A stretch of DNA of 64,000 nt from Cinnamomum chago (Eukaryota > Streptophyta > Magnoliopsida > Laurales > Lauraceae), in the NCBI GenBank assembly GCA_038049695.1, contig CP142458.1, forward strand, positions 60,607,501 to 60,671,500. The letters run 5' to 3'. Below are positions 33,201 to 64,000 of this stretch, in pieces. Numbering within the stretch: the stretch's first letter is position 1; every line of letters begins with the position of its first letter. The notes beneath the pieces are model-generated. The model saw nothing but the letters and a program-made list of their open reading frames with translations, was not told the DNA's origin and searched no databases. A program made the translations under genes and the position numbers.

Positions 33201-35651
33201 GAGCCATAACCGACAGACTGATCCCCATAGAATGAAGTTTCCATACGCAACTTCTTTTCAGTGAGATACATTTCAGCCATATCACCATCATCATCCATTA
33301 GCTGCTCAATCTCATCCCTAACCTACATAAAGAAAGCCAAGAATTATTTAGACTTGAAAAGATGGATTCCATTAAAACAGCTAGACTGATGTTTCTTCCA
33401 CACATCTGTACAAGTGGCGTATGTGCATGCCACTGCTATCTGAATAGTGGGCTCAATGGCGAACGGAATATATAACAAAAACCATCCTGCTAAGAAGATC
33501 CAAACTGCAAGATTTTGATAATGGAATCTTGACTCCTGACCATTTTACTTCATTCATAATCTTCCAAATAATAATAGCAGCCAATGGATAGTCAAAATCA
33601 TATTATCCGCATAACTCCAAGTTGGACAGCTTAATTTTATACTGTAATCCATCCAATAGTGGAGCCTACGATCTCGGCAGTCAGTATTGAGAGTAGACAT
33701 GGATGTCACATTTAGGGAGGAAGATTATCAAAAAAAATCTCCAAGTTGTCCTTTAGGGGGGAGATTAGCAAAAAAATTCTCCAAATTGTACTTCTAGAGA
33801 GGTACGCACTCAAGAGAAAACTATTACACAAACAAAAAAGGGCATATGGAAACACCTTTTGAACTCTTCGTGTCAAAGCAACAAGTCTGCTTTTTAACCG
33901 ACGCACACGTTCCAAGTTTAAGGTGCTGATCTTTGATGTCAGTTCGTCTAGTAAAGGGTATGCTTCAATTTCCAGTTCTGCTGCCTGACTCAAATGGGGG
34001 AAAAAATAAGCTACTTACTTAAAAGAGCGAAAATGCTTATAAAACTCAACATCAATAAAACTTGAAATTAAAATGAACATGAACAATCAAAGCCCTTCTT
34101 TTAGATCTGTTTATGAAGAGGCAGCTCTTGCAAGTTGCAACAGATCAATCAAAGGGCATACATGCAAGAAATTATGCCAGTGCACTGTTTCAGCTTTACA
34201 TAAAATAAAGGGAAATATAAGGTGCTCTGAATAAAGTAAGTATAACACATAGCCAACATATGGTGGCAGGAAGTAATACAATGGCCGATAAGAATTAATG
34301 CAATAAAAAATTGGGCATGTTATTCATTCATCATCATCATCGAAGCCTTGTCCTAACTATTTGGGGTTGGCTTTGTGAGTTCTATTTTTAAAATCAACCC
34401 TATTGAAAGTCATGATCTTGTTAACTCCATACTGCATCATGTCTTTCCTAACTACTACATTCAAATCTTCATTGGTCCCCCCTACTCCCACCTCCTGAAG
34501 TTGTAACCTGCTGTACATTATACAGGGGCTGTTTCTAATATTTCCTGTATGTGCCCAAACCATCTCAAGTGACATTCATTGATTTTCTTTTCTGCAGGAC
34601 CTCCTCACAAGTTTCCTTTTATGAACTCATTTCCAATTTTATTCTTCCTAGCAACTCTATACATCAATCTTAGCAGCAGGTATTTTTGCTTTTCATTTTT
34701 TTGTTGATCAGAACTCATATCTTATTTACAAGTACCAACTTGGGTATAACCTAGAATTATAAATATTGCATAGAAATACATTATAACCCATCTGGATACA
34801 TCCATAATAGATTTTCTATGAATATGTATCTTGCTAGATTCAACTGCACTAAACAAAATAGTATGGTATCATTATATTTTTATGCTATTTTCTAATGACA
34901 ACAATTCCTTTATTGGAAAGAAACAGGATTTTAATCTTGTTTTATTGGATTAAGAGAGGGGTATGTTCTTTAATTTCAATTCAATCAAATTTCACTATTG
35001 CCTCTAAAACAAACCAATAAAACACCCAATAAAAATCCACCCCACACGAACCTGCCCATCAAGAAAGGTGCAGGCGGCCTCCAACGCCACTTCCAGCGCG
35101 CGAAACTCAAACGGCAGATAATCCGGCGAAGGCGTCCCACCTCCGAATCCATCGGAATAACCCAACCCAGCTCCTCCACCAACGCCTCCGCCTCCTCCCC
35201 TCCGGTTCAAATCCCCACCGTCCGTTAGCCTCCTCTGCAGCTCCACGACATACTGCAACACGTAATTATCGAGCGAGTTGAGCAACAAGACCTCATCAGC
35301 GGTGATGATGCATCGGATCTGCTCGAGATTGACGACGATGGCCTTCTCTCGGCCGAGGATGGTGGAGGGGTAGACGAAGAGGGGGTCAAGGAGGCGGAGA
35401 TCGCGGGCGGGGAGATCGCAGCGGCGCATCATGGTGAACTTATCGACCTCGATGATCTGGGAGTTGCCGGAGGTGTCGACGCGGATCCAGGAGCGGAGGC
35501 CCTGGCCGCGCTTCTTGAGGCCGAGAAAGTCCATGCCTTGGAAGAGAGGGCGGCCGGAGGCGGAAGGGCGAGAAGGGAGAGGAGGGTCTCTAGGGTTTAT
35601 AGTAGATGATGAGGGCTTTGGAGGGAGGAGAGGGTCTTTCAGGTCCGCCAT
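30236..35651 (-). CDS. MRS2: MRS2/CorA-type magnesium transporter, five exons, 446 residues
   Basis: Exons on the minus strand: 35651-35052, 33984-33856, 33322-32990, 32898-32851 and 30466-30236. All junctions are GT-AG in phase 0. The 446-residue product is close to the roughly 440 residues of Arabidopsis MRS2-1 and MRS2-10. The N-terminal cytosolic part includes LKKRGQGLRSWIRVDTSG and a Gly-rich insert (near 155-170). The helical region AAELEIEAYPLLDELTSKIS, RRVQKVRDEIEQLMDDDGDM, then LLEAYFVVIDSTLNKLTSLK is diagnostic of plant MRS2. Exon 5 gives TM1 (about 381-401), the signature GMN at 402-404 and TM2 (about 419-439), ending KYRRLMPL. The family moves Mg2+ through a pentameric channel in vacuolar, plastid, ER or plasma membranes; the location of this member is not evident. 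It is complete, with no frame damage. Introns 1 and 4 hold repeat DNA. Confidence 0.96.
31042..31244. repeat. Direct repeat, 70 bp identical, in MRS2 intron 4
   Basis: 31058-31127 and 31175-31244 are identical (starting AAAAAGGTCTTTCAAATC). A similar but imperfect lead-in (TTGAAAAGT(G/C)CTT) precedes each, giving a period of 117 bp. Confidence 0.95.
32271..32364. repeat. Tandem repeat, two units of about 47 bp, in MRS2 intron 4
   Basis: GAGTTAACACTGATTGATTC at 32271 recurs as GAGTTAACACTGACTGATAC at 32319. The units share the continuation to TTCAAATGTGAA, with a few substitutions. Confidence 0.88.
32455..32480. repeat. (TTTA)n microsatellite in MRS2 intron 4
   Basis: About six ATTT units in a row. 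Confidence 0.9.
34326..34575 (-). mobile_element. RTE-type LINE 3' end in MRS2 intron 1
   Basis: On the minus strand the piece reads LEMVWAHTG in one frame and LRWFGHIQ in another, like the RWFGHVQR end of RTE-type reverse transcriptase ORFs. It closes with CCAAATAGTTAGGACAAGGC and a GATGATGATGATG tail, the usual plant RTE 3' terminus. Related tails lie at 55098, 56752 and 61386. Confidence 0.7.
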
Positions 35652-37600
35652 TAGAGAAGGAGGAGGAGAAATGGAAGGAAGGGAAGGTTGCAGGGATGGT
35701 GTTTGATGAAATTCCTGAACGGAAACAGAGTGTATGAAAGAGAATAAAGAGAGGTTAGGATTTGAGTGTGGAGTGGGATACCATTTTGGTATTTATTGCG
35801 TACGTAAGCGGATTTGGAAATGTTGGGAATTCAGTGTCCATTGGGCCCTCCAAAGAGGATATCAGGCCCGGCCTTCAAAAGCTTGCAAGATGTGAGGGTT
35901 TTTTTTTTTTTTTTTGCATGATATCAATTGAGATCCGTAGGATATTTTTGCAAGGTTGTAAATGTGTATCTAATTGTTCTAGTATTTGATGTTTCTAATT
36001 TTAAATAAAGTGGATATGAAACTTATTTTTGGTTTTAAAAGAAACTGAAATTTGAATTTGATCAAAGCATGTCGGATTTGGATTCTGGTACTATTATGTT
36101 TTGATTCGGGTTTTATTATGTTTTGACTTGAGGGTCTAGTTGTAATACGGATAAATTTTTCATAAGAAATTAAGTTTGGATTTTGAAATTCATTTGAGTT
36201 TCAATTAGAATTTAAAGAGTTCCAAATGATGTCTTCAAGAAATAGAATTCCAAGATGCTAATGCTAAAAAGCATTTTGAATTTCATAATTCAGAGAATTA
36301 TGCTAGGCAAAATGAGTTTTTCTTGATCAGCTCTATAAATTTCAACATCCATGACCCAATCAAATAAGGAATTGTGGGACACAACCCTTGCATTTTTGTC
36401 AATTTCTTACTAAATAGATCCCGCATTTACAAATTCTTCTCAAACCAAGATGATTTTTGGAATTTCATGCTAGTAAGGACTTTGAGTTCCATGTGGGAAT
36501 AACATTTTTAGAAGGAAAGCATATTATTAACCTTCTTTTATCCCCAAAACCAATTTAAAAATCACTTTATGGGCCTCACCGATCAAATATTGATGGTGGG
36601 GTACCTTCTTTTGATGGTTTAGTCGCTTGAGAGAAAGTTGGAATTGATCTTGAGGTTCTTTTCTCTAGATTCTCATATGACCCAAGTTTCAACTTGATCT
36701 TGATGATCATAAATATTTAAAGAATCTAGGTTTTCAGTAATTCAAAATTTATATAAACCCTTCTTTTTTAACCATCCATGGATAAAGATAGTTGAAATAG
36801 GCCCCACTAGGTCGTTTGGATTGAACTTAATAATCTCTCTTTAAATAATTCCCTAAAGGGAAAAATTTGAAAAGTGACATAAGGGCATTTTTGTTCTTCT
36901 TAAAAAAAAAACTTGATTGCAAAAAATATGGAAAGATATAATTATACTCTTTTGAAATATTCAAATCTTCATGTGCCCTTTTTTTTTAAATGAACTAAAA
37001 GTATACTATTTTGAAAATTTCCTTATTTAAAATTTAAATGGGAAATTCTCAAAAAAGGTATAAAGCTTTTGGGATCATTTTCAAAAAATTACATTAATTA
37101 AGATTTGAATATATCTAAAATGTATAAAAGTCTCCACAATTGATTCACTGAAGTCTCCTCCATAAGAAACTCCTGGGAAATGAAAAAAACACCCTAATGT
37201 TATTTGTTATTTTTCAAATTTACCTTTCATAAATTATTTTTGAGAAATGATCAAGTCCAACCCAAATGACCTAGTGGACCCTTGCTCGAACTATCATTAT
37301 GCATGAATGGTTACAAAAAAGGACTCCAAATGACTAAAAAGCTATTTTGTCATAATAGAAAGGTATTTTTTCATTCTACAAAAAGATTTATGGAGAGGAT
37401 TTGACTGAAAGAATTGTGAAAAACTTATATATATTATTTGAAATATTCAAATTTTTGGTACTTTTTCAGAAATGAGCCAAAGAATTTATAATGTTTTTGA
37501 AAATTTCCAAGAAATTCTCATAACTCTAAAATTCTACAAGAAGCGGGCCCATATCCGTCCCATAACCCTTTCTTTTAAGGGATTTTTATGAAAAAGATTA
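35652..37600. other. MRS2 upstream region and AT-rich intergenic DNA
   Basis: 35652-35780 is purine-rich and probably holds the 5' leader and promoter of MRS2, with a poly-T run at 35899-35915. Beyond it no gene or repeat is recognised. Confidence 0.45.
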
Positions 37601-49700: not shown

Positions 49701-50882
49701 GACCTCTCAGTCTCACTGTCTCTCACATGCCCTCCAGAATGCTTTCAATAAGAAAAGAAATTTTTTTTCGAAAGAACACGTACCACACCCAAGGGGAAGA
49801 AAGAACGTGTCAAATTCCCCTGTTAGCTTGAAAAGAATCTCAGAATATCTAGATACGCGCTTTGAAAATTTCACCTTCCTTTCTTCCAGTTCTCGTCATC
49901 ACTCGTCACGCAAGCGGTAACAAAAGCAAAGACCTGGGCTGCAAATTCCCAGTTTGGCAAAATCGGGCACTTTGCAAGAAAGGGCGACTAAGAATGGAAC
50001 CATCAGGGATTCAGGATCAAGTGATCCTGATAACATGGCCGCCTCCAAGTATGAATGAAAAAATGAGGAGGAGATAAGGGTTCTGATAGGTTAAGATGTT
50101 GATTAGTATGATCTGTTGTACCAGTCGTGTGAAATGATTCTAACCCCTGACATTATCTTTTCAAAGTACAACATCTCTATATTATATAAGTTTTATTGGG
50201 GTAAAACAATTTGCCACTGAAGTCTCCATTAAAGTGGAACAGAAAACACCAATACATTTAAGTGCTTAGGAAGGGGTTGGATTAATCATAAGTGGAGCTC
50301 AATGTCTCGAACAAAAGCCCAAATTATATAATAGATTTTTGTTTTGAAATTCTCGGATCCCATTAGATGGTTATCCACTCTCTTGTAATTTTTGATCCAG
50401 TGGACACATCAACTGCCATGTTTGACTTGATGTGGCTTGTAACGGGCCAAGTTACACTAGCTTGCCTCCCGTTTTTGTGCTTTCATGGTTTAACATCGCA
50501 CCTTTTTCTTTTTTTTAAGTAGAATTCATAATTGAAATTCAGCAACGTCTAAATATGATGTGATACCATGTCACCTGGCATTTGAAAATGCCATTTCTCT
50601 TCAAAAACATTTTAGAAATTCAGCCATATGAAATGTTTCAAATGACTTCTGAGAAATTAGAAATTTCAGCTAAATTTTTAGATGCTCTAGTACAAGGGTT
50701 TATTCAAGAATTCCACTATGTCTAGGAATGCGGGAATTCCCCGGACAACAATTCTTTGAATTATTGCAAAGAAACAAGTCTTAAGTTTCTACAACAATGC
50801 CATGGATGGCTTTTCCTATGGAGGAATAGGAAAGACTTCTCTGTTTTGCAGAAAAGTTGTACAGTAGACTTCTGCTTTTCTC
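46799..50882. other. Intergenic DNA without a supported gene
   Basis: Several short open frames occur (for example 47079-47303 and 49660-49920) but none matches a family or has paired splice evidence. No clear repeats are seen beyond AT-rich tracts. Confidence 0.4.
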
Positions 50883-50885
50883 TTA

Positions 50886-51418
50886 GGGCATGTTTGTGTA
50901 ACACTTTTCCGCGGAAAAGTTGAAGATTTTCCACGGAAAACCTATTTTTTCAGTGTTTGGTGCGGAACAATTCCGCGGAAATGCTTTCCTGCCTCGTCAG
51001 CATTTTCCTTGATAATTGTGGAAATGAGTTTCCCATGGAGGGGTATGGGAAATGGTTTTCCTCGGAAAACTTCTCCCTCTTTTCCTCACTCTTGTCAATT
51101 TCAACCCAAAAACCCTATAACTCTTTCATTTTTTATTTCTTTATATAAATTATTATTTAATGTTAAATAAATAATATACATGTTATGTTATTTTTCTTCA
51201 AAAAATTATATCACTAAATAAGAAATTTTGATTTTCTATAAGGAATCCACAGCCGCACCAAACAACATCTGCACCAATTCAATGAGGAAACTCTTTTTGC
51301 ACCAAACATGAATTTCTAAATTCTATGGAAATCCTTTTCCGAGGTTTTCATTTCTATGGAATTTGCTGACGTGGCAATTTCCTCTTTCCGCGGAAAGAGT
51401 GTGTACACAAACGTGCCC
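50886..51418. mobile_element. PIF/Harbinger (Tourist-like) MITE, unit 1
   Basis: The left end GGGCATGTTTGTGTAACAC pairs with the right end GTGTACACAAACGTGCCC. TTA lies on both sides (50883-50885, 51419-51421). The TTA duplication and GGGC...GCCC ends fit PIF/Harbinger. Palindromic TTTTCCGCGGAAAA motifs lie near the ends. Confidence 0.9.
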
Positions 51419-51421
51419 TTA

Positions 51422-51953
51422 GGGCATGTTTGTGTAACACTTTTCCGCGGAAAAGTTTACGGTTTTCCGCGGAAAACCCATTTTTCCGGCGTTTGGTGCG
51501 GAACAATTCCGTGGAAATGTTTTCCTGTCTCGTCAGCATTTTCCTTGATAATTGAGGAAATGGGTTTCCCATGGGGGGGGTATGGGAAATAGTTTTCTCG
51601 GAAAACTTCTCCCTCTTTTCCTCACTTTTGTCCATTTCAACCCAAAAACTTTATAACTCTTTCATTTTTTATTTCTTTATATAAATTATTATTTAATGTT
51701 AAATAAATAATATACATGTTATGTTATTTTCTTCAAAAAATTATATCATCATATAAGAAATTTTGATTTTCTATAAGGAATCCACAGTCGCACCAAACAA
51801 CATCTGCACCAATTCAATGAGGAAACTCTTTTTGCACCAAACATAAATTTATAAATTCTACGGAAATCCTTTTCCGAGGTTTTCATTTCTATGGAATTTG
51901 CTGACGTGGCAATTTCCTCTTTCCGCGGAAAGGGTGTGTACACAAACGTACCC
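51422..51953. mobile_element. PIF/Harbinger (Tourist-like) MITE, unit 2
   Basis: Nearly identical to unit 1 and in the same orientation, joined to it by a single TTA (51419-51421), with TTA again at 51954-51956. Its right end reads CACAAACGTACCC. The substitutions are spread evenly. No transposase is present. Confidence 0.9.
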
Positions 51954-51956
51954 TTA

Positions 51957-52990
51957 TGCAAAAAGTCAATTTCGATTCCCATCCATGGGAAATATGTTCT
52001 TATAATATTACAGAAAATTGGTAACCTTTTTAGCAATTTTCCCTTGAGAAAAATGTATTGTACCAAACTGCTACAAAATGACAACTAAAGAAAAGTAATT
52101 CCTTTTGAATGGCAATTCCGTGAAATTGGTGCGAAAAGTGTGCCAGAAAGTTAGTCTAATTAATGTTGGGGACCTAGTGCTCATTTTTCATAACAAATCT
52201 AACTTCTTGAATATTTTTTATTTTATTTGAGAATTTATTGATATTATCGTGTTGTTATTATAGAACTATATTTCCCAATACTACTGTGACATTTTCAATA
52301 TATTGTAAAATTGAAACTGGAACAAAAAAAAAACACAATAGTGTCAAGAAAGTAGTTTTATGTAGTAGAATTGCATTATTTTTTATTATTTTAGTAATAT
52401 AAAAATTACTAATATCCTTATAAAACCTAAATTCGAAGCATTTTCCGAGGATGGTTATTCTCCAAGAAATATTTATATGAGAATGGTTAAAATTGAAGAG
52501 ATGATGACACACACACACCCCCCATCACATTTGTAGAAAATAGGGAGCATATAATGATAAATTCTCAGTCACAATTTCATCAAAATACCCGATGGCTATT
52601 TTTAAAGTACAATTAAGATCACTTAATCTAAATACAACTCCAATAACCATCTCTTAAAATATCCTATTCACATTATAATTCCGACCTAACTTAATCCTAA
52701 TTAAATCACAAATCAAACCTAAGTTAATCAATCTATGATGAACTCATCAATTCTTCATTGAATCACATGATCTTTTTTAAAAAGTTGCTTGTAATAGGTC
52801 ACAAAATATATATCCCCCTCATTTGGATTAATGTCCAGGTGCAACACCAAGAAGCCGATTTTGCAAGTCCTAAGCGAGCATTCATGTCCTTTGCAAAACA
52901 AAAACACGCGTTTCTGCCAAAACGAGCATTCATGTCCTTTCCTGCCAAAATGTTTACGTTCGCAGAAAGTTCACAGGACCCATACATGTC
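51957..52990. other. Intergenic DNA
   Basis: No gene is seen. GCGAGCATTCATGTCCTTT at 52874 recurs as ACGAGCATTCATGTCCTTT at 52921, a short direct repeat just upstream of the putative promoter at 53001. Confidence 0.45.
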
Positions 52991-53000
52991 CTTGTGTTCC

Positions 53001-53008
53001 TATATATA
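53001..53008 (+). promoter_or_regulatory. Candidate TATA box for the three-helix membrane protein gene
   Basis: TATATATA is followed about 90 bp later by CAA|GTAAGT, a strong donor. A non-coding first exon of roughly 53030-53101 is plausible. Confidence 0.4.
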
Positions 53009-53725
53009 GAATAATAGAACCGCAAAGAAGTTCATTTCCAGAATTACCTCCTCTGCTTGCATTCCTCAGGAAGTGGAACTGATTTGGGCTACAGAGAGCA
53101 AGTAAGTTAATCTTCCCTTTGATATTCATTTTCCTTCATATTGAACCCCCACATGATGTCTGATGGTATCAGCTGTCCATCTCTTGGGGCCCTGTCAGCC
53201 CTGATTATGATAAGCCCCTTTTCAAAAGAGTCAGGATGCTCTGATTAACCAATTTCTACTCCAAAAGGATTTTGGCCCACCAACAGAGTATCCGGACTCT
53301 GACAAGGAATGATGCCCATCACAGTTATCTAAAAATCAAATGGATTGTGGAAAACAAGAGATACCAACAGTCCACAATCAGCTAAAGATTGGATAATACA
53401 TCACTCACATGTCCAACTGCCTTCCTTCCAAGAGTATGCTCTGTTCAGATGGGACTCACCAGATGAGAAGTAGTTTAGATGATCCCACTGTGGCCCTCTA
53501 ACACAGAGTATATACAGTATACTTTTGTTGGCTTTTGCTTGATGTTTAGTTGGACAATCAGAGCCGTCCATCAAATTAGATAAAATTAGCAAATCGACAA
53601 TCCGGAATTTTTTCTTTTGCCTTTTTTTTTTTTTTTTTTGTTTTGTTTTTTGGAATGCATTTTTATAACCATCTAACGTTTTCTTCTCACCCAACTTCAA
53701 ATTTCAGGTGGAAACCAAAATTCCT

Positions 53726-56700
53726 ATGCCTTGGACTAGAAACAATCGCATATTTTCATTCATCTGCTCGATGTTCGTTAATTTTGACAAGTTATTTAAA
53801 TTTTTTGGGATTCAAGTGTCAGAGGTACGATGTTTGTTTCTTGATTTAATTTCACTCAAGGGAGTTTGCCTACTTGGCAACGAATTCCTAAAATGAACTT
53901 ATCCATGGATCTACTTATAATCATTGAAGCTGGTCCAGCTGTAGCTTGGATGGTTATGAGCATGTGTAGGGTTGATTGGGCTCTCCTGTGAGTGTAACTT
54001 GCTTGACCCTCAAAAAGTCCACAAAATGAGTTATTTTTTATTTTTCTCGAAAAGCCCAAGGGCAGGGCTTGGACAAGATTTTTGTAGGCCTCCCAATTTG
54101 AGGGCTCTGTTTGGACAATACTAGAGCCAATCCGTCCGGGATCTGAGCAATGGTTTTTAAGTGGGTTCCAGTTGGCATGAGATCACTTCTCTTTAGTTAT
54201 TTGGTTTGATGTGTAACTCACATTCATATTCAACTCTAATGACTCAATTCCAATGGGATCATTCTCTTTAGTTATTGGGTCTAATGGTTGTCTAGCCATC
54301 ACCCTAAATCTGATTGTAGTAAAGTCTACCACAATGTTACTTGTTGCATTCTATTGACAGTCCCAAGCTTGGAGAAAGGAGAGTTAATGTCAGGTTTATA
54401 CTCGGTGTCTAGTGGTAGTGTAGAAAAACATTAAAAACTTTAATCTACGTAGTAATTGTGCTGGTGCCTTACCACTCATTCATACTAGGTCCACCAACCT
54501 TCACTACCAATCAATTGGGCGAGGAAGAGGAGGAGGTGGAATGGTCTCCCATGTAAAGGGTGTGTTAGGAAAATTGTGTGGCCCCACGGCTATCGGGCCC
54601 ACGCCAGATCAAGCCCAGCGGTATGCCGCGGATGAACTCTACATCCAACTCTACATCCAAAGTTTAACGGTCTTTAGCTGTGCCTTGTACATATTCAATC
54701 CAACGAAGAAATAAAGGTCAAATGAGTAGCAAATTGGGCCTAGTGCCAGGGGAAATTGGGTGTCGAGGGGGCATATAGATCAAAATGCCCCCAAATGAGT
54801 TTCATAAATACAACTGGACTATAGATGTAGTCTGCTCACAGGAGAAGATTTCTTTCCCAACATTTTTAAGCCTAGCTCAAGGGTAGGGTACATGCAAGGG
54901 GAAAAAAACTTAGATTAAAGTGGAAAAGTGGTATCGAAAGTGCTAATTTTTGCTAGATATTTAATCAACAAGATTTTCTCATATTTAGTAGAACCATTGG
55001 GCTCCACTCGCATGCCAAATGTTTTGTTTAGGGTGCTTTATTGCTTCATTGAACTCAGATTAAATCTTAAAGACATGTCTTCATCCAAAATAGATTCATC
55101 ATCATCATCAAAGCCACGTCCGGCTACACGAGTTTTATTTCTTCATCCAAAATAGATTATTAAGTTTATTTTTCCCACAATGCAGCACCATGTCAACTTC
55201 AATGTAGAAAATGAGGAACGTCGAATTGAAATGGATCCATTGAGCAACAATTCTCTACTTTCTCAGGCAAGGCATCAGATTGGGCAACCAACAATTGATG
55301 GTCTCAATGTCGGATTTGATGGAAATGTGGTGAATGAGGTATTAATAGTTTCCTTTATTAATAACTAACCCTCAAATAGCTTGATCCATTGACCTCTACC
55401 ATAATGATTGTGTGCTTTACCATTGTTGTCATCTGCTGGTTCATAGTGTTGGAAGTAGGTGGGCATCGTGGATAGATTTTCAAAACTTTTGACCCACTTG
55501 ACTCAGGGCTCAAGTACCCATAAGGCCATAAACCATATCCAGGATGCAATCCCTCCTTCTCATCAATCAAGTACAGCAATGGAACCTCTCTAAAAGATGG
55601 AAATCAGCAACACTATGCATCCAAAAACAATCCACAACAAATAAAGAAGTAGATTATACATTTGGAGCCCGGTAGTGCTCTAATGGAGAAGAAGATTTGC
55701 TTGTTGAAGAAACTCTTTCTTTAAGCAAACTTAAGATCTGCAAGACCTCGTTGTCTTCTACGCTATGACCAGCTATCAGATCTCTTTTCTAAAGAAGATT
55801 GGTGGAAACTTCAAGAGAAAACCCTACTAGAAACTCCAAGGAACTAGAAGAGAACTAAAAGAGGAAGTGAGAGAAGAAAGAGAAGTGCAACTCTTGCACA
55901 AAAGGGGGCTGGGCGTGAATTCCAAGAGAGTGGACGTCCCAGCCCCTTTGCTCCCTTTTTATAGCTTTGCAAACCTCCTCTTTACCTAATTGAAATAGAA
56001 GTCCAACTTCCAAAACAATTAGCAACTTTCTCCTTTCTAATTATTATAGAAGTCTCACTTCCACATTAGTAACTTACTATTACCACTATTAGAAGTCCCA
56101 CTTCAAATAGAAATAGTAACTTTCTAATTCATTCCTTTTGGAGTTCAAGTAGGATTAGTATCTTTCTAATAACTTGGGCTAGCGTGGGGACCACTAGGGA
56201 TTCCATAGAAAGCTGGCTCCAACTGGGACACCGCGCCTATAGTTAATTGCAAACAACACCACCATATAAATCGAGCCCGGCGGTGTGCCGCGGATAAACT
56301 CTACATCCAAAGTTTAACGGTCTTTAGCTGTGCCTTGTACATATTCAATCCAACAATGAAATAAAGGTCAAATAAGTAGCAAATTGGGCCTAGTGCCGGG
56401 GGAAATTGGGTGTCGAGGGGGCATATAGATCAAAATGCCCCCAAATGAGTTTCATAAATACAACTGGACTATAGATGTAGTCTGCTCACAGGAGAAGATT
56501 TCTTTCCCAACATTTTTAAGCCTAGCTCAAGGGTAGGGTACATGCAAGGGGAAAAAAACTTAGATTAAAGTGGAAAAGTGGTATCGAAAGTGCTCATTTT
56601 TGCTAGATGTTTAATCAACAAGATTTTCTCATATTTAGTAGAACCATTGGGCTCCACTCGCATGCCAAATGTTCTGTTTAGGGTGCTTTATTGCTTCATT

Positions 56701-59700
56701 GAACTCAGATTAAATCTTAAAGACCCGTCTTCTTCCAAAATAGATTCATCATTGTCATCATCAGCAAATCCCTGTCTTAACTATGTTAGAGTCGGCTATA
56801 CAAGTTCTATTTCTTCATCTAAAATAGATTATTAACTTTATTTTTCCCACAATGCAGTACCATGTCAACGTCAATGCTGAAAATGAGGAATGTCGAATTG
56901 AAATGGATCCATTGAGCAATAATTCTTTACTTTCTCAGGCAAGGCATCAAACTGGGCAACCAACAGTTGATGGTCTCAATGCCGGATTTGATGGAAATTT
57001 GGCGAATGAGGTATTAATAGTTTTCTTTATTAATAACTAACCCTCAAATAGCTTGATCCATTGATCTCTACCAAAATGATTGTGTGCTTTACCATTCTTG
57101 TCCTCTGCTGGTTCATAGGCGTATTAAAAAATCTTCATTAGATTAAACAATATTAGCTTAATGGTACCCCTGTCACCCTTTTGGGGCAAGCAAGATATCA
57201 ATTTGTATTTGTTAGAGGGGTGGAACCAGGGGCAAATTTTTCAAATTTCTTCTTTTTTTTTTTGCACACAATATTTCCACCTAAATCTTTTTTAACATTG
57301 TGGCCATGTGTAAGGAAAACTTCTTCTCTTCATGAGGATTGATGTGGTTTTATTGGCCGTATTTGGGATGCTTATCGATCATAATACCACGACGAATGTG
57401 ATTAAGTATCGCCAGTATTTTGTATCAGCTTCTTAAAATACCAATATATATTGTCTTTTGGTAGGATCTGCTCTGTGGCATTAGGTAAGATATCAGAGAC
57501 AAGGACAACTCTGTTTCCGATGGGGGGAGTGTGAGATCTGGTGTGCCCCTGTCAAGATGGTAGATCTGATTAAAATCCAGTGCGCCTAATACCTAATAGG
57601 GCTGCACATGGGTGGTTCAGATCGGTTTAACACTAAAACCAACAACCAAACCGAATTTGTTGGTTTTTTAATTGACCGATCCGATCCGACCGACGGAGAG
57701 GGCTTAAACCGAACCGAACCAAACGGTTCGGTCGGTTAAACCGTTGTTTTTTATTTTATTTTTTTAAAAATCAAACATTGAAAATCTCAAAATGATGATA
57801 CCCCGTCCTTTGCATTTATTCCAATGTTTAGTGCAAACATAAAAATCCAACATTCCAGACTAGATTAAATGCATATAAAAAATAATTCTACTCCAAAAAG
57901 AGAGTTTGGACTAAACGCAAGCGCACAAAAAAAATTAAAAAAGGTAAATAACCAGCTTGCAGTGAAACATTCATTCCGCATGATACCATTTGGAATTACA
58001 ATATAGTAATAGTTCATTTCAATAAAAGTCACACACAAACGGAATCTGTATCAAAACCCACTGTATTTTTCAGAAATGAAGGTTTCTTAACACATTGGTT
58101 AGGTGAGACCAAAACCAACCATCAAAAGGCTAGGCTCTACTGGCTTTTCTAGCATTTTCAAGAGTGTAGTCTTCTGATAAAAGCTTCATTAAAACGAGGT
58201 AGGAATTATGATGGAATGAAAACACCCGGTACAGTAATCCCTCCATCTGCAATGAAGTATCAAAAAGCATTTGAGAAATTAAAGGAGATGCATTGAGACA
58301 GTGTTAGACGGTTAAGTTCATGTGAGAATGGAGTTGTGAAATGTAACTTTGAAAGTGATAAAAAACAAAATCATAAGGCTAAAATAGTAAAATAGTAACA
58401 CTTAAGTTATTGCATACGGTCGGTTCGGTTTAAGCGGTTAACCGTAGGCTCAAATCGATAACCGACCGATGCAAGCGGTTTTTATGATTTTCAAACCGCT
58501 AACCAAACCGATCTACTATAAATCGATCCGAACCAGTTCGGTCGGTTCGGTTTGGTTTTGCGGTGAAATCGGATTTTTTGTGCAGTCCTAATACCTAAAA
58601 CCTAATACCGGAGGGACACTTGGACTGAACCAGTCACACATCGAAAACATCTAAGTTAAGAACCTGGACTTAAGTAACCATGGGTTACCATATACTATTA
58701 TAATGTTCTTCTCGTAGGATCAGCTCAGTGGTTTTACCCACGGCCCATATATGTTTAGAGTAAGGCTTGGACAACCAGCACATTGGAGCCCTAATGATAA
58801 CCATGAATGAAGTCTTTAGCCTTTTCTTGGCGATTTTGTTAGGTCATGGTATAACCCTCTTGTGTACATGTGGTGGAGCGATGCTGGAATACCTTCCTAA
58901 CACAACTAATAGACCATAAAACTATTTTGTTGTGCCGTTTTTCATTACCAATTGGTTTTGGTATAGTGGTAGCTCAGTCGGGTATGAGATATTACAAGTG
59001 GTATTAGAGCCTCGTAAAATTTGGGGTTCGAGTTTCCTCTCATGTGGTACCAGTGAGGGGGGATCCGTGGTGGAGTGCAACCAAATCTGATCACTTGAGG
59101 GACAGGTGCCTCCTACGAAGGGTCCTGTGATGGATGTTTTCATCTGAATATGCCCTACCTGCCTATGAAATATGGGGCTCATCCTAACCCATTAATCCAT
59201 GGCCATTAAATTTAATGATCTTAAACTCAAATGGTTTTTTGACCACTTCAGATAAAATTGGCTGGTGCTCATATATATATATATATATTGTCCCTCGGGT
59301 GAGAATTCTCCATAAAACCAAAGATTACACAGTTTTTTTTTTTTTTGTTTCCTTCCATTGGATGATTACATGGTTTTTTCTCTTGACTCTTTCTTCCTTC
59401 AATTTAAATATAGAATTTCTCGTTTTACTTCAGATGCATCAAGATCAATCACGGCCAACACAGACAATTGATCAAGATGAAACTTTCAAGAGCGGTGTGA
59501 AAGTTGCATTCTGGGCAACATCAATTTCTGCTTCTGGTGTTACTGCCGTATGGGCTCCATTGCTTGTAAACCAACCAAACTCTCCAAAGTGTAAATTTTT
59601 CGCGAAGGCAGCTTTGCTATCAATGGGTGCCTCTTTCATATCTGGTTTGCTCATCTTCATCCTTTCATTTATACGCCCGAAGTTCGATGCCACATCTACG

Positions 59701-59790
59701 ATGGTAAAAATCTTCATGTTTGCAGCAATTGGTTCTACGGCGCTGGTTGTGGGTTTTGGGGTTGTATTCTACTTTGAAAACTCTGGATAG
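53726..59790 (+). CDS. Predicted small three-helix membrane protein with one exon present twice
   Basis: Proposed coding exons: 53726-53824, 55186-55338 and/or 56858-57010, and 59434-59790, all phase 0 with AG acceptors and GT donors. Exon 2 follows AACTTCAAATTTCAG, exon 3 copies follow TTTTTCCCACAATGCAG, and exon 4 follows CGTTTTACTTCAG. The product has 202 residues with one middle exon and 253 with both. The start is MPWTRNNRIFSFICSMFVN. The middle exon is soluble (ENEERRIEMDPLSNNSLLSQ). The last exon has three hydrophobic segments (about 106-129, 141-164 and 174-198 in the short form), with VAFWATSISASGVTAVWAPL and a final VVFYFENSG. I do not recognise the family and give no function. The last exon is the best-supported part; the link to the upstream exons is inferred from phase and splice signals. 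The long introns contain an LTR, a hAT element and RTE tails. Confidence 0.5.
54561..54610 (+). mobile_element. Fragment of the short LTR family
   Basis: TGTTAGGAAAATTGTGTGGC and CCAGATCAAG match the start of the solo LTR at 46457 (TGTAGGAAATCGTGTGGC, TCAGATCAAG). Similarity ends where the duplicated segment begins. Confidence 0.5.
54611..55446 (+). repeat. Segmental duplication, copy 1
   Basis: Matches 56272-57118. The first 400 bp or so are about 98% alike by eye. The stretch includes an RTE tail remnant near 55098-55130 and the 153-bp exon at 55186-55338. Similarity stops at GGTTCATAG, exactly where the LTR at 55447 begins. Confidence 0.92.
55447..56258 (-). mobile_element. LTR-like element of 812 bp between the two duplicated copies
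   Basis: It begins TGTTGGAAGTAGG and ends GCAAACAACA, with perfect TGTTG/CAACA termini. On the minus strand a CTATAAAAAGGGAG TATA-like box lies near 55960, followed by about 500 bp of transcript-like sequence, so the LTR is read leftward. The flanks (CATAG and CCACC) do not match, so there is no target duplication. No internal coding part is present. Confidence 0.72.
56272..57118 (+). repeat. Segmental duplication, copy 2
   Basis: Second copy of 54611-55446, about 1.66 kb downstream and in the same orientation. It holds the exon copy at 56858-57010 and a longer RTE tail remnant (near 56752-56810) than copy 1. Similarity ends after GGTTCATAG. Confidence 0.92.
57597..58590. mobile_element. hAT-type non-autonomous element, 994 bp
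   Basis: Ends are TAGGGCTGCACATGGGTGG and TTTTTGTGCAGTCCTA. The perfect 8-bp duplication ATACCTAA lies at 57589-57596 and 58591-58598. Subterminal CGGTTCGGTCGGTT repeats occur in both orientations. No transposase is seen inside. It lies in the last intron of the predicted gene. Confidence 0.92.
58599..58960. other. Intron sequence of the predicted gene
   Basis: No distinct feature was recognised. Confidence 0.35.
58961..59060 (+). mobile_element. tRNA-like stretch, possible SINE head or retrotransposon primer-site relic
   Basis: TGGTAGCTCAGTCGG (58967-58981) resembles a tRNA A box and GGGTTCGAGTTTCC (59024-59037) a B box. Between them, TGGTATTAGAGCC (58999-59011) differs by one base from the initiator-Met primer-binding site common in plant LTR retrotransposons (TGGTATCAGAGCC). 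Both readings are possible, and no tail or LTR was found. Confidence 0.4.
59270..59287. repeat. (AT)n microsatellite
   Basis: Nine AT units just upstream of the last exon of the predicted gene. Confidence 0.9.
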
Positions 59791-60423
59791 AAATTCTGGT
59801 TATAACTGGCATAATTGTTCATTTGAATGGATTGGCCTTGATTGTTCTTTTAATGTTGTTGTTGGTTATTAGAGCTTGATTTTAAATGTAATTGTCTACA
59901 GTAAGAATACTTGTATAAATAAGAGATACATACTTCGATGTGTTTATATATTTTTCTGAACTCATTTTGATTTCATGGTATTCATACGTAGGACAAGATA
60001 CAAGAGTCCTATCATCTGTGTTCTGAGATTTCACATGGATGGCTCTGAAATCTGATCCAACTTTAGATGACTAGTTCCTATTCATAACCCAGTATCATAT
60101 GTTTAGCCCCCATATTTCTCAGATGCACAATAAATTCAATAGCACAACAGCATAAACAAGTGAAAGTAGATTGTATCAATCGCGCAGGCATTCTGGGAAG
60201 AAGCAGCCATGGGTTCTCCATTTTATTAGGAAAGACAATAAGAGAGGATTTTGAGAGAAAAGCTGCATCTTTCACTGAATTGATGTTCTGTTTATATATT
60301 AGAAGACTTGCCAGAAACACATAAGATTACAGTTAATCTACCGATTGGATACAAATCACCTAACTGACCTAAGATAATCTATGGGCCTAAATGTGGAATG
60401 TATATGAATACAAAAGATATTGT
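59791..60423. other. 3' flank of the predicted gene
   Basis: GTATAAATAAGAGATAC near 59912 could serve as a polyadenylation signal. No other feature is seen. Confidence 0.4.
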
Positions 60424-60991
60424 TAGGGTTGTAAACGGGTCGGTTCCGCCTGGACCCGGAACTGTTTAGTAAGAGGGGGAACCGGACCGGACCCGAATCG
60501 AAACCAGGAAACTGCTTCCGGAACCGGTTTCGATAATTTTAATGGGAACCGGAACCGGAACCATTTGTGAGGCGGGTTTGGTTCCGGTTCCGGGTATGGT
60601 TCCGAGTCTAGACTAATACATGTGTTTTTCTTTTTAAAAAATTTATGCTTTTTCCATATTTCAATTGGATCACCTGCAAACACTAATGTGACTTTTGTCT
60701 ATCAATAACATGCACTTTTAACCAAAAAACTCAGAAAGTAGAAAAGTAAAAAGGATTCTATTTTCATATACAAAAGTTACCTTATATTAGTGTATATTGG
60801 GTCGGGTCTCGGGTCCACGGGTTTGAGCCACTGTGGATCCGGAACCGGACCCGTTTAGGTATCGGTTCCAAAAAAAGGATCCGGAATCAGAACCATTTGC
60901 TTATCGGGACCAAAATAAGGACCCAGACCCGGAACCTAACGGGTCGGAATCTTCGGGTAATCGGAGAATCGGGGACCCATTCACAACCCTA
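60424..60991. mobile_element. hAT-type MITE, 568 bp, complete
   Basis: Ends are TAGGGTTGTAAACGGGTCGG and GACCCATTCACAACCCTA, with the perfect 8-bp duplication GATATTGT at 60416-60423 and 60992-60999. It is filled with GGTTCCGG/CCGGAACC motifs on both strands. There is no coding sequence. It is the reference copy for the remnants at 20420 and 26630. Confidence 0.95.
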
Positions 60992-61243
60992 GATATTGTA
61001 CACTAAGGAGATGGCTAATGGAATCTTCCTTTTATCCAGAACTGGTTTATCAGGCCCATTTAGTGGACCCATATCTTGACGGATTTATCAGGACCAAACT
61101 TCACTATGCGCAGAGATACTGTTGGACCAGTTCGACCCATTTTGTGCCCATCTTGGCAATGGTCCTGAGAAGCAAAACCCATTCCAAGTTATTGAAGGCT
61201 TCAGAAAGCGAGCCTCCTGTCCTGAGAGTTTAAGACCATGAAT

Positions 61244-61245
<2 letters not shown>

Positions 61246-61279
<34 letters not shown>
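61246..61279. repeat. (TC)n microsatellite
   Basis: About 17 TC units. Confidence 0.95.
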
Positions 61280-61282
<3 letters not shown>

Positions 61283-61385
61283 ACAGTACCAATCTCTATA
61301 CGTTAGAGGGAAGTGGCAATGTGGGATCTTAACTCATCAAGGCTGACTTATGGGCCACATACTATCAAGATTTTCTGGAGATTTA

Positions 61386-61462
61386 TAAGAGTGTAGGAGA
61401 TACAGATCTCATATAGCTGACTCCAAAGTAGTTAAGACAAGAATTCGATGATGATGACTTTC
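61386..61462 (+). mobile_element. RTE-type LINE 3' tail
   Basis: GACTCCAAAGTAGTTAAGAC, AAGAATTC and a GATGATGATGA tail match the RTE terminus described at 34326, in plus orientation. Only the tail is left. Confidence 0.6.
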
Positions 61463-63008
61463 AAGAAATGTTAATCTAGGGTTTAAACCCACAAAGATTA
61501 TTGCGCCTACAAAGGCTATGTAAAAAACTTGTTCCATTAGATCATGTGTTACACCTGGTGTGTATAGGACCTATAGGCAACTCATACACATCCTTACTGC
61601 ATGATTCACACAGATCTGTGGAGCCATTTTGCCACAGTTATAGGATCTGTTCACCAGGTAGAGACCTTCATGCCTCAGCGAGGCCGATGTTCTTCTAACC
61701 ATATCTATCCAATATCCATCAGACGTTAGAATGTGATGAAATCACAACCAGAATATAATCAAAGGAATGACACCATGTACAGCAAATAAATGAATTAGAT
61801 CACAGTCCCAACAATCTGACGATGCCCAGATAAAAGTGTGTATGCACCAACCATAAGCAACTGCAAATCTATGAGGCCTGTTGTTTGCTCAGGACTGAAT
61901 TTATAGGGATTTTAACTGATTTATTCCAATAAGTGAGGGTAAGATTGAACAAACAACGGTGAAGATCTACAAATGGCCATCAAAACTAAAATAGACTTTC
62001 CATTGGTAGGAAATGATTACCTAGCTACGCTGCCATTACCCCAGTAAATAAAATCTTAGGAAAATGAGGATCTCATCTACATATCCAACTCATATCCTTC
62101 ACACCTCACCTCTTTCATAATCCATTTTTGAAACCCATTTTACCATGAGTTCGTAGGAATTCAATTCCATGCAAAGGGACCTGAAGATAAATGCATTTCC
62201 AATGGAAGAATCTTCATAAGACAACTTTCTTTCCTCAGAATAGTGGACAAAAGCGGTATTTCTTTCTACAGTGGGAAATGCCATTGATTGTTCTCTTTGA
62301 ATCAGGTGGATCATCCCACTGGTTCAGCAGTCTTAACTTTAGACTGCCCTAAAAATCACCTAAAGCCTTTATATAGAATTAGTAAAAACTGAAAATTCAA
62401 ATATACAGATACATACATTCTCTTTTTAACTGCATCAAAAGCATCCAAATCTTATTCAGTGGCCCACCATTCATATCACATGGCATATCAAGGCTAGAAA
62501 AGGCCTGACCATGTTTGTGCTGAAAACAGCCTTTCAAATGGAGCTCCTTGTACACATTTGAGAGGAGGCCAAAATGCTATGAATCGACCAGTGCTACATG
62601 AAGGTGAAATCTCTCACAAACAATTGATGCTCAGCTCCAACTATAGAGACAAGCTTGGTTCTATTGCTCAAGGTATTTTGACAAATGGCCAGCACTTCCA
62701 TGAAGGTGAAATCTCTTAGCCATGAGATTTCTTAGTCAAATCATGATCCAAGGATTAGAGAGCAGAAAATGTAGAGGATCATCATTCCAACAATATACAC
62801 TAGTACTGGTGAGACTCTGTTACTATATTAGATAACCAGAAGTCCAGAACAGTAAGAAAAAAACTCTCGCAATACTTCTATTGTTGGTAAAGCTACAGAT
62901 GATTATGATAAGATGTGAAACCAATGGTAAAATTAAACTGAAATAAATTGATTGTAATCGTTTCATCATCCACTAAAATCTCCTATTAATATATATTCTC
63001 ATGCCACA
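61463..63008. other. Intergenic DNA and 3' flank of the transposase gene
   Basis: No gene is recognised. CCATGAAGGTGAAATCTCT near 62697 is echoed by ACATGAAGGTGAAATCTCT near 62597, a short direct repeat. The part near 63008 may hold the 3' untranslated region of the minus-strand transposase. Confidence 0.4.
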
Positions 63009-64000
63009 TTATGATGTAAAATTTCTTTTACTGTAAGTCCTTTTCTTTGCTCTGGATGTTCTTGGAGTGTCTTTCATATGATGAACATTGGAAATTGGAT
63101 GAATGAACTCTGAGTAAGCCCCCCTGCAGTTGGCGACTGTGTAGTGTTCACAATAATCCAAAACATTAGATTCATGTACCCATATAGCTGCCACAGCATG
63201 ACAGCAAGGGAACTTGTGGAGTTGCCAAATGCGACATGTGCATGTTCTCTCTGCTAGATCCACAATATGACCGTTGTCACAGATAGACTTGGTGTAAAAC
63301 CGTCTTTGATTTTGGTGCTTCGCATTGATGGATGATCGTTTAAGTTGAGCCTCTACATCATCCAAACGTCGCAAAGCATAGGGCGTCAGCTGTCCTACTT
63401 CATCTGAGCTTTCTTGCACTTGGTTACGAAGAAATATCTCCCTTATGTTTGTGTGGAAGCGCCTCAACATCGAAATAACTGAAGAATTCATTGCATTTCC
63501 ATCATCTCTCCAGATATCAAACTCTTCAGCACTCAGATGATAGTCTATGCAATCTTGCTGACCATCAAAGCATGAAACAGCCCAGAAATTGGGGGTAGGA
63601 CTAATTTCCTTAATCCATTTTTGAGCTTCAGGAGAAATGTGTGAGATTTCATCCATGCGTAAACGAAAATAAGCTTCAGATTCAGCATCAATTGCCTCAC
63701 GGAAATGAAGAAGCAAATCCTTGTCTTTGAACTTCTGATAAAAATCCTCACAAAGGAGCTTGCGACAGTACCGGTGGTGAGCTTTTCGAAAGATACTTCC
63801 CACTGCTTCCGAAGATTTTTCCTGTTTAACTGTAATAATTGTGACTTCGGGCGAATCCACCAATATGTGAGCCAGTTGACGACAGAACCAAGTCCAGGTC
63901 TCTTGGTTAGATGACTCAACAACAGCATATGCTACCAGAAAACTGTTGTAGCCAGCATCCAGCCCTGTTGCATAAAGCCATATGTGCGGGTAGTCTCCTC
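63009..64000 (-). CDS. Mutator-like (MuDR/MULE) transposase, C-terminal part, open to the window edge
   Basis: One minus-strand frame is open from 63998 to the stop at 63009, about 329 codons, and continues off the right edge. At the edge it reads GDYPHIWLYATGLDAGYNSF and LVAYAVVESSNQETWTWFCR, the core of the MULE DDE domain. Next comes AHHRYCRKLLCEDFYQKFKD, the usual MULE HRYC motif and helical part. The C-terminal SWIM zinc finger is intact (CTCRIWQLHKFPCCHAVAAI, pattern C-x-C...C-x-H). It ends in a basic tail, RTSRAKKRTYSKRNFTS. Some residues differ from typical copies, such as VDSPEVTIITVKQ where ITDRQKG is usual, so a catalytic Asp of that segment may be missing. No stop or frameshift is visible. 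It could be a young element or a domesticated MUSTANG-like gene; the catalytic residues to the right would help decide. Confidence 0.85.
   Translation of the reverse strand, partial: GDYPHIWLYATGLDAGYNSFLVAYAVVESSNQETWTWFCRQLAHILVDSPEVTIITVKQEKSSEAVGSIFRKAHHRYCRKLLCEDFYQKFKDKDLLLHFREAIDAESEAYFRLRMDEISHISPEAQKWIKEISPTPNFWAVSCFDGQQDCIDYHLSAEEFDIWRDDGNAMNSSVISMLRRFHTNIREIFLRNQVQESSDEVGQLTPYALRRLDDVEAQLKRSSINAKHQNQRRFYTKSICDNGHIVDLAERTCTCRIWQLHKFPCCHAVAAIWVHESNVLDYCEHYTVANCRGAYSEFIHPISNVHHMKDTPRTSRAKKRTYSKRNFTS

What the first reader, a model, noticed from the sequence alone, without database searches (positions are those of the whole stretch)
55186..57010. A symmetric 153-bp exon is present twice and differs more between copies than its flanks
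Copies at 55186-55338 and 56858-57010 both start after a CCCACAATGCAG acceptor, end at GAG|GTATTA, and are phase 0 at both ends, so either, both or alternating use keeps the frame with 59434-59790. I count 13 substitutions over 153 bp (9 amino-acid changes of 51) against about 7 over the 400 bp upstream and about 5 over 107 bp downstream. Faster change in coding than in intron DNA suggests diversifying selection, relaxed selection on one copy, or conversion that homogenised only the upstream part.
Basis: partly seen in the sequence, partly recalled or inferred. Interest (0 to 1): 0.72.

Follow-up and report, generated by a model that had tools for sequence, protein, structure and literature searches.

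The report
Duplicated exon in a plant gene
A plant gene in a small tandem family carries one short exon twice; the exon is not changing unusually fast, rather the DNA in front of the two copies seems to have been made alike again, so this is an ordinary though well-preserved case of exon duplication.

Summary
The duplicated exon is real: same splice sites, phase 0, 13 of 153 bases and 9 of 51 amino acids differ. It is exon 3 of a gene with three intact paralogues on the same chromosome, each carrying exon 3 once, in frame, so it is very probably coding. The "faster than intron" claim fails. What is odd is the block 54647-55075, only 8/429 different. Between this gene and its nearest paralogue that block differs 37/468 and exon 3 differs 11/153. 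The block is therefore not slow by nature; most likely it was homogenised between the copies (Fisher 2e-5). dN/dS of exon 3 across the family is 0.87 (0.52-1.86): no evidence of diversifying selection. A truncated LTR of a high-copy retrotransposon lies at the junction of the copies. Best reading: an old exon duplication in a recombining tandem gene family, later partly homogenised. Whether transcripts use one copy or both is untested.

The parts
53000..53101 (+). TATA-like CTATATATAG (53000-53009) and inferred 5' UTR exon 1 ending CAA|GTAAGT
   Evidence: read directly; donor matches 8 of 9 consensus bases; transcription start inferred, no RNA evidence
53708..53824 (+). exon 2; ATG at 53726, 33 codons, ends in phase 0
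   Evidence: TTTCAG|GTGGAA acceptor, GAG|GTACGA donor; 33-codon homologues in the three paralogues
55186..55338 (+). exon 3, copy a (51 codons)
   Evidence: exon 3 found once and in frame in three paralogues
56858..57010 (+). exon 3, copy b (51 codons)
59434..59790 (+). exon 4, 118 codons and stop; two hydrophobic segments
   Evidence: hydropathy peaks; paralogues 87-98% identical over 117-118 residues; acceptor and phase in paralogues
54608..55446 (+). duplicated unit A
56270..57118 (+). duplicated unit B
54647..55075 (+). block that is nearly identical between A and B (8 of 429 differ; partner 56297-56725); inferred conversion tract
   Evidence: control against paralogue
55097..55139 (+). 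short inserted element upstream of copy a, between 19-bp direct repeats TCTTCATCCAAAATAGATT (55078-55096, 55140-55158); a longer form lies upstream of copy b
   Evidence: absent at the same place in L007 and L008; the SINE-like motif is recalled, not from a call
55447..56271 (-). truncated LTR of a high-copy LTR retrotransposon: one end intact at 55447, other end cut off where it joins unit B
54563..54640 (+). fragment of a second dispersed repeat (starts TGTTAGGAAAATTGTGTGGCC); the left edge of unit B cuts through it

Best explanation
This is exon 3 of a small membrane-protein gene in a tandem family of plant genes. The exon was duplicated in tandem by unequal exchange in the cluster, at about the time this gene and its nearest paralogue separated; internal duplication and fusion of two neighbouring paralogues would leave much the same structure. 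An LTR retrotransposon inserted directly behind copy a, and a deletion running from inside that LTR into the intron before copy b made today's junction. The copies then drifted at the same rate as the introns, and later a block of about 430 bp in front of them was homogenised by gene conversion, which left the exons and their near flanks different. Both copies remain open with intact splice sites. Because their splice sites are alike and every combination keeps the frame, I expect both to be recognised, giving a 253-residue protein with two tails and/or 202-residue forms. Shown: copies, gene structure, family, step, paralogue control, LTR. Inferred: order of events, conversion as mechanism, splicing.
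For: Step in divergence at 55018-55076, reached by 3 of 5000 permutations without the ambiguous stretch and by 0 of 2000 with it. Longest identical run of 196 bases reached by 8 of 5000 permutations. Control: this gene vs L006 differs 37/468 in 54608-55075, 9/110 next to the exon, 11/153 in the exon, 6/108 behind it; copies a and b differ 8/429 in 54647-55075 (p=2.3e-5 against the control) but 27/353 to its right, as the paralogues do (26/371, p=0.78; the 353 leave out the ambiguous stretch, the 371 do not). Site patterns: 54601-55075 groups A with B (24+7 sites, against 10+1 and 4+1; the two segments overlap by 9 bases), while 55076-55446 without the ambiguous stretch is star-like (11, 13, 11). 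Exchange is common here: 59217-60423 and 60991-64000 differ only 9/1197 and 29/3003 between the two genes while intron 2 from 54044 on differs 8-9%. Coding: four genes with exons 2, 3, 4 open and in one phase, their length differences (9 bp in exon 3, 66 bp in exon 4) being multiples of three. LTR at the junction.
Against: Copy a and L006 share the ~22-base gap in front of the exon that copy b lacks, while in the exon copy b is nearer to L006 (7 vs 11 differences), so no single tree fits. In the block, the pattern expected if the duplication were shared with L006 (A with c1, B with c2) is found at 0 sites, against 5 for A with B and c1 with c2 and 1 for the third; L006's own partial second copy may thus be an independent event. 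In 54044-54600 the three sequences give 22, 21 and 31 sites, no clear order. L007 and L008 show no similarity to 53925-54945, so that part has no outgroup. A younger duplication whose right part was overwritten from a lost paralogue fits almost as well. No RNA data.
Confidence: 0.55

Rival explanations
1. Young duplication, overwritten exon: the tandem copies are young (about 2% apart, as the left block shows) and the right part of one copy, exon included, was replaced by conversion from a diverged paralogue or allele.
For: Explains the step equally well; the region is a patchwork of low and high divergence to L006; relics of relatives lie nearby (L013, L049).
Against: No donor found: the exon has 5 matches in the genome, 2 of them the copies themselves, and the nearest other differs at 7 of 153 bases from copy b and 11 from copy a. 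The donor must be lost or on the other haplotype.
Confidence: 0.2
2. Fusion of two neighbouring paralogues: a deletion between two tandem genes joined intron 3 of the first to intron 2 of the second, so copy a and copy b are the exon 3 of two former genes. (A variant of how the duplication arose; not exclusive of later homogenisation.)
For: Right parts of a and b differ as much as paralogues do; against L006 the upstream side differs 44/992 (51953-52949) and 18/585 (intron 1), the downstream side from 59217 under 1%; L006 has a similar joint, intron 3 (57295) to intron 2 (54044).
Against: Needs the left block to be homogenised as well; the <1% part starts at a joint in L006 (59217), so it may reflect a separate event in L006; behind copy b, 57119-57295 still differs 18/177 from L006.
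Confidence: 0.2
3. Functional alternative exon pair (mutually exclusive or cassette) under diversifying selection.
For: Equal length, equal phase, identical splice signals, both open; a 14-base stretch at 54437-54450 is complementary at 13 of 14 bases to 54908-54921 and 56558-56571, the arrangement of the docking/selector model (model in PMC6071210, passages seen).
Against: dN/dS not above 1; complementarity reached by 21 of 300 shuffles; 1519-bp intron between copies, and joint inclusion keeps the frame, so neither steric hindrance nor frameshift would enforce exclusion; no relative with both exons found (5 matches in this one genome).
Confidence: 0.08
4. One copy is a decaying spare: only one exon is normally used and the other drifts freely.
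For: Codon-position counts 6, 4, 3 show no third-position excess; dN/dS not below 1; the stop-free state of both copies is kept in about 71% of neutral runs (2842 and 2835 of 4000).
Against: Neither copy has a stop, a frameshift or a damaged splice site; single-copy exon 3 in the other genes evolves in the same way, so high dN/dS is not a mark of the duplicate.
Confidence: 0.25
5. Assembly artefact: two alleles placed in tandem.
For: Two similar 0.84-kb units 1.65 kb apart; no reads available to check.
Against: Different outer flanks, a truncated LTR at the joint, and a step in divergence; assembly in 14 contigs.
Confidence: 0.03

Closest known systems
Tandem exon duplication within a gene (internal duplication of a symmetric exon)
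   Same: Same-phase exon with flanking intron repeated in tandem; insertion or removal keeps the frame. PMC6071210 (passages seen) treats this as a source of mutually exclusive exons.
   Different: Here in a tandem gene family with partial homogenisation and an LTR at the joint; no splicing data.
Mutually exclusive exon pairs of the docking/selector type (Dscam and others)
   Same: Homologous exons of equal length and phase; a candidate complementary stretch in the expected places.
   Different: Complementarity is not beyond chance; exclusivity untested. PMC3064661 (passages seen) lists 4 mutually exclusive events in its Arabidopsis thaliana row (proportion 0.002), so such pairs are rare in that annotation.
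Gene conversion between repeated sequences in plants
   Same: Mosaic divergence with a sharp step and an overlong identical run; PMC7251063 (abstract and passages seen) reports potentially converted regions in 25% of plant LTR pairs.
   Different: Here within intron sequence of a gene, not within an LTR pair.
DUF2776 (PF10951)
   Same: Exon 4 gives a weak hit, E 0.0019, 18 bits; L006 exon 4 E 0.0022.
   Different: Below the curated cut-off of 26.1 bits; the L007 protein and L008 exon 4 give no hit at E<=1. Not a member on this evidence.

Membership tests
Tandem exon duplication | Homologous exons in direct repeat, same length and phase, with intact splice signals | tested here: met
Tandem exon duplication | Exon is open and in phase in relatives | tested here: met
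   single in-frame exon 3 in three paralogues
Tandem exon duplication | Ancestral single-exon state shown by an outgroup at the same locus | tested here: inconclusive
   L007 and L008 carry one exon 3 but are paralogues, not orthologues
Mutually exclusive exons | One and only one copy in each transcript | not testable with these tools
   no RNA data
Mutually exclusive exons | Competing RNA pairings beyond chance | tested here: not met
   21 of 300 shuffles reach 13/14 complementarity; the energy-based test timed out
Mutually exclusive exons | Exclusion enforced by frame or by too short an intron | tested here: not met
   all combinations in frame; intron of 1519 bp between the copies
Gene conversion tract | Sharp local drop in divergence against a control for the same DNA | tested here: met
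Gene conversion tract | Tract seen arising within a population or against an orthologous outgroup | not testable with these tools
   no second individual or species available
LTR retrotransposon LTR | TG terminus, high copy number, primer-binding site adjoining in full elements | tested here: met
   6498 first-look candidates, 40 scored; of 19 further loci read, 16 start at TGTTGGAAG and 4 have TCTGATACCA beside it; that this is a primer-binding site is recalled
LTR retrotransposon LTR | Two intact ends with target-site duplication | tested here: not met
   far end truncated: the family runs on past the window's joint in 18 of 19 loci read; no flanking repeat
Exon under diversifying selection | dN/dS significantly above 1 | tested here: not met
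   omega 0.87, interval 0.52-1.86

The most novel reading that the evidence does not exclude
A chimeric gene, made by fusion of two tandem paralogues, that uses both exon 3 copies to give alternative or doubled N-terminal tails, with conversion restricted to the intron so that the tails stay different.
Probability: 0.1. Interest if true: 0.5.

Novelty: new member of a known kind. Interest (0 to 1): 0.28.

Why it matters
It is a compact natural example of how a tandem plant gene family can produce an extra in-frame exon and then partly re-homogenise it. It also shows that comparing an exon with only part of its intron can mimic fast exon evolution. It would matter more if RNA showed regulated use of the two copies.

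Tried and rejected
Diversifying selection: tested by counting, by a codon model and by neutral simulation; no support. Exon 2 has omega 3.0 but the interval includes 1 (0.90 up to 20, the edge of the grid).

First codon model (exon 3 omega 0.92) and the pairwise table with L007 and L008 used exon starts in L007 and L008 that were wrong: one acceptor codon too many in exon 3, and an exon 4 start 66 bp too late. Found when the report was checked; corrected (exon 3 is 144 bp there, exon 4 423 bp, both in phase). The conclusion did not change; the confidence in the best explanation was set from 0.58 to 0.55, because the conversion reading rests on one paralogue as control.

Rejected as evidence.

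Exact LTR-to-LTR recombination at both edges: first suspected because unit A ends at the LTR's first base. Relatives show the LTR runs on beyond the window's joint, so one edge is a truncation.

The idea that 54044-54950 is a mobile element as a whole: among the 42 listed matches (40 of 436 candidates scored) the near-full-length ones lie in this gene and L006, a 78-bp part being a dispersed repeat. A duplication shared with L006: not supported by the four-way site patterns (0 of 6 informative sites), not excluded.

Function: Pfam gave only a weak DUF2776 hit, and a weaker VIT1 hit (E 0.056) for the joined protein; exon 4 has no match at E<=5 among PDB sequences and no confirmed relative in viral or prokaryote contigs. 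Literature searches; they covered exon duplication, splicing, LTRs and SINEs, not this gene family, so no claim about print is made.
Full report
WHAT IS THERE. The window is C8:60607501-60671500 of a 1.06-Gb genome in 14 contigs; introns, TATA box and LTR retrotransposons suggest a plant (inference). The two 153-bp stretches are as described: copy a 55186-55338 and copy b 56858-57010, both with TTTCCCACAATGCAG in front and GAG|GTATTAATAG behind. They lie in duplicated units A (54608-55446) and B (56270-57118). 13 of 153 bases and 9 of 51 residues differ.

THE GENE. A full gene can be read around them: TATA-like box at 53000-53009, an inferred 5' UTR exon ending 53101, exon 2 from 53708 with ATG 53726, exon 3 twice, exon 4 from 59434 to the stop at 59790. 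Every combination (a, b, a+b, neither) stays in frame, giving 202, 202, 253 or 151 residues. The donors of both exon 3 copies match 5 of 9 consensus bases, exon 2's donor 6 of 9 and exon 1's 8 of 9. Exon 4 has two hydrophobic peaks above 1.6 on a 19-residue scale; exon 3 has none. Pfam gives a sub-threshold DUF2776 hit.

THE FAMILY. Searching the genome with copy a returned 5 places, all 5 candidates scored, all on C8: itself, copy b, and one place in each of three other genes. Searching with the exon 4 protein returned 9 places from 11 candidates: four open full-length copies on C8, three partial or broken ones on C8, and two open but distant ones (34-36%) on C7. The three other intact genes, in L006 (C8:60743400-60753300), L007 (60841000-60849500) and L008 (61238500-61247000), have exons 2, 3 and 4 open and in the same phase, with a single exon 3 of 153, 144 and 144 bp and an exon 4 of 357, 423 and 423 bp. 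All length differences are multiples of three. In these three genes exon 4 begins with V or E, not M, which argues that translation starts upstream and exon 3 is coding. That the copies are stop-free is weak evidence by itself: about 71% of neutral runs for the pair and 24-27% for all five copies stay stop-free.

IS THE EXON FAST? No. The substitutions along units A and B show one step. The best position is 55075 (support interval 55051-55076, or 55018-55076 without the ambiguous gap neighbourhood 55105-55122). Left of it 8 of 429 differ; right of it the exon shows 13/153 and the adjoining flanks 14/200. The step model gains 12.9 log units, an exon-only rate 1.8; adding an exon rate to the step gains nothing (LRT 0.26). 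Without the ambiguous stretch the figures are 9.3, 3.1 and 0.13. Permutations reach the step in 0 of 2000 and 3 of 5000 cases (without the ambiguous stretch), and the 196-base identical run in 8 of 5000. Against this: pooled against all flanks the exon does look faster (p=0.067 with, 0.014 without the ambiguous stretch), because of the left block. A two-step model with a short, very different stretch 55103-55136 gains a further 7.8 log units; that is the neighbourhood of the 22-base gap, where the alignment is unsafe.

THE CONTROL. Comparing this gene with L006 gives the expected divergence of each stretch: 51/541 in 54044-54607, 37/468 in 54608-55075, 9/110 in 55076-55185, 11/153 in exon 3, 6/108 behind it. 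Exon and intron 2 change alike (p=0.64), and the left block is not slow by nature. Only the a-b comparison is low there (p=2.3e-5), while to the right a and b differ as much as the two genes (27/353 vs 26/371, p=0.78). The left block has therefore been homogenised between a and b, or the duplication is young and the right part of one copy was overwritten. I prefer the first because no donor for an overwritten part was found in this assembly. The control is a single paralogue.

SELECTION. Counting gives dS 0.106-0.136 and dN 0.078-0.084 for the pair, omega 0.58-0.79; codon positions changed 6, 4, 3. A codon model on the family with corrected exon limits gives omega 0.87 (0.52-1.86) for exon 3, 3.0 (0.90 to the grid edge of 20) for exon 2 and 0.61 (0.30-1.29) for exon 4. 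None differs from 1 (p 0.72, 0.12, 0.21). The tree was fixed by me, with a and b as sisters, which the site patterns do not secure. Between L007 and L008 exon 3 has 8 non-synonymous and 0 synonymous changes, which may merit a look with more species.

HOW IT AROSE. Unit A ends exactly at the first base of an LTR in minus orientation (55447). The LTR family is very common: 6498 first-look candidates, 40 scored. Of 19 further loci read, 16 start at the same TGTTGGAAG and 4 have TCTGATACCA next to it, the complement of a primer-binding site (identification recalled). In 18 of the 19 the family runs on past the window's joint, so the far end here is cut off, joining unit B inside a fragment of a second dispersed repeat. 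There is no flanking target-site repeat. An insertion followed by a deletion explains this; the order is inferred. L006 has its own joint: intron 3 at 57295 runs into a second copy of intron 2 (54044-54956), which runs into 59217. Its second copy has no exon 3. Site patterns do not show that the two duplications are the same event (four-way sites 0, 5 and 1; 54044-54600: 22, 21, 31; in 54601-54965, copy A shares 32 sites with L006's first copy and 18 with its second, the two L006 copies 9, which taken alone would make the L006 duplication older than the split). From 59217 on the two genes differ by under 1% (9/1197 and 29/3003). The cluster thus appears to exchange sequence repeatedly.

CONFLICTS. 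Copy a and L006 share a gap of about 22 bases before the exon that copy b lacks, yet in the exon b is nearer to L006 (7 differences against 11). A single tree does not fit, and the age and order of events stay open.

SPLICING. Nothing here tests it. The docking/selector arrangement described in PMC6071210 (passages seen) was looked for; the candidate pairing is reached by 21 of 300 shuffles. PMC6243048 (abstract and outline seen) reports mutually exclusive exons in a spruce MADS-box gene, there as first and last exons.

VERDICT. A real exon duplication of a known kind; the anomaly is in the intron, not in the exon. Interest is modest.

Noticed in passing
window 50882-51956: Two tandem copies (94%) of a ~536-bp element with inverted-repeat-like ends next to TTA; L006 lacks both, its sequence running from 50884 straight to 51953.
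   Followed up: partly
window 59217-64000 and L006 4998-9206: Two stretches over 99% identical by substitutions to the paralogous locus 84 kb away (9/1197 and 29/3003), while intron 2 of the same genes differs 8-9%: a recent exchange or duplication with an edge at 59217.
   Followed up: partly
window 60424-60990: About 567 bp absent from L006, with a short overlap at the joint: probable insertion.
   Followed up: no
window 53726-53824: Exon 2 has 6 non-synonymous and 1 synonymous change against L006; family omega 3.0, not significant.
   Followed up: partly
L007 5499-5567 and L008 5861-5929: Exon 4 of these two genes is 66 bp (22 codons) longer at its start than in this gene and L006, in frame.
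   Followed up: partly
window 53008-53030: Cluster of 14 substitutions against L006 just behind the TATA-like box, with an 8-base gap; possibly a misaligned indel.
   Followed up: no
L013 (C8 near 60722050), L049 (60687855), L051 (61286791), L053 (61292584): Partial or broken relatives of the gene near the cluster: exon 2 without ATG in L013, exon 4 pieces in the others, L049 and L051 with stops.
   Followed up: partly
L050 and L052 (C7 38481742 and 38509846): Two open, distant relatives (34-36%) of exon 4 on another chromosome; family not named.
   Followed up: no
window 57600-58600: Region of intron 3 with GGTTCGGT-type inverted repeats and GTGCAG/CTGCAC-like ends; looks like a non-autonomous DNA element (type recalled).
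   Followed up: no
window 3143-3577 (-), 32882-33322 (-) and 35004-35792 (-): MULE transposase domain (E 1.3e-24) and two stretches of an MRS2-like magnesium transporter.
   Followed up: no
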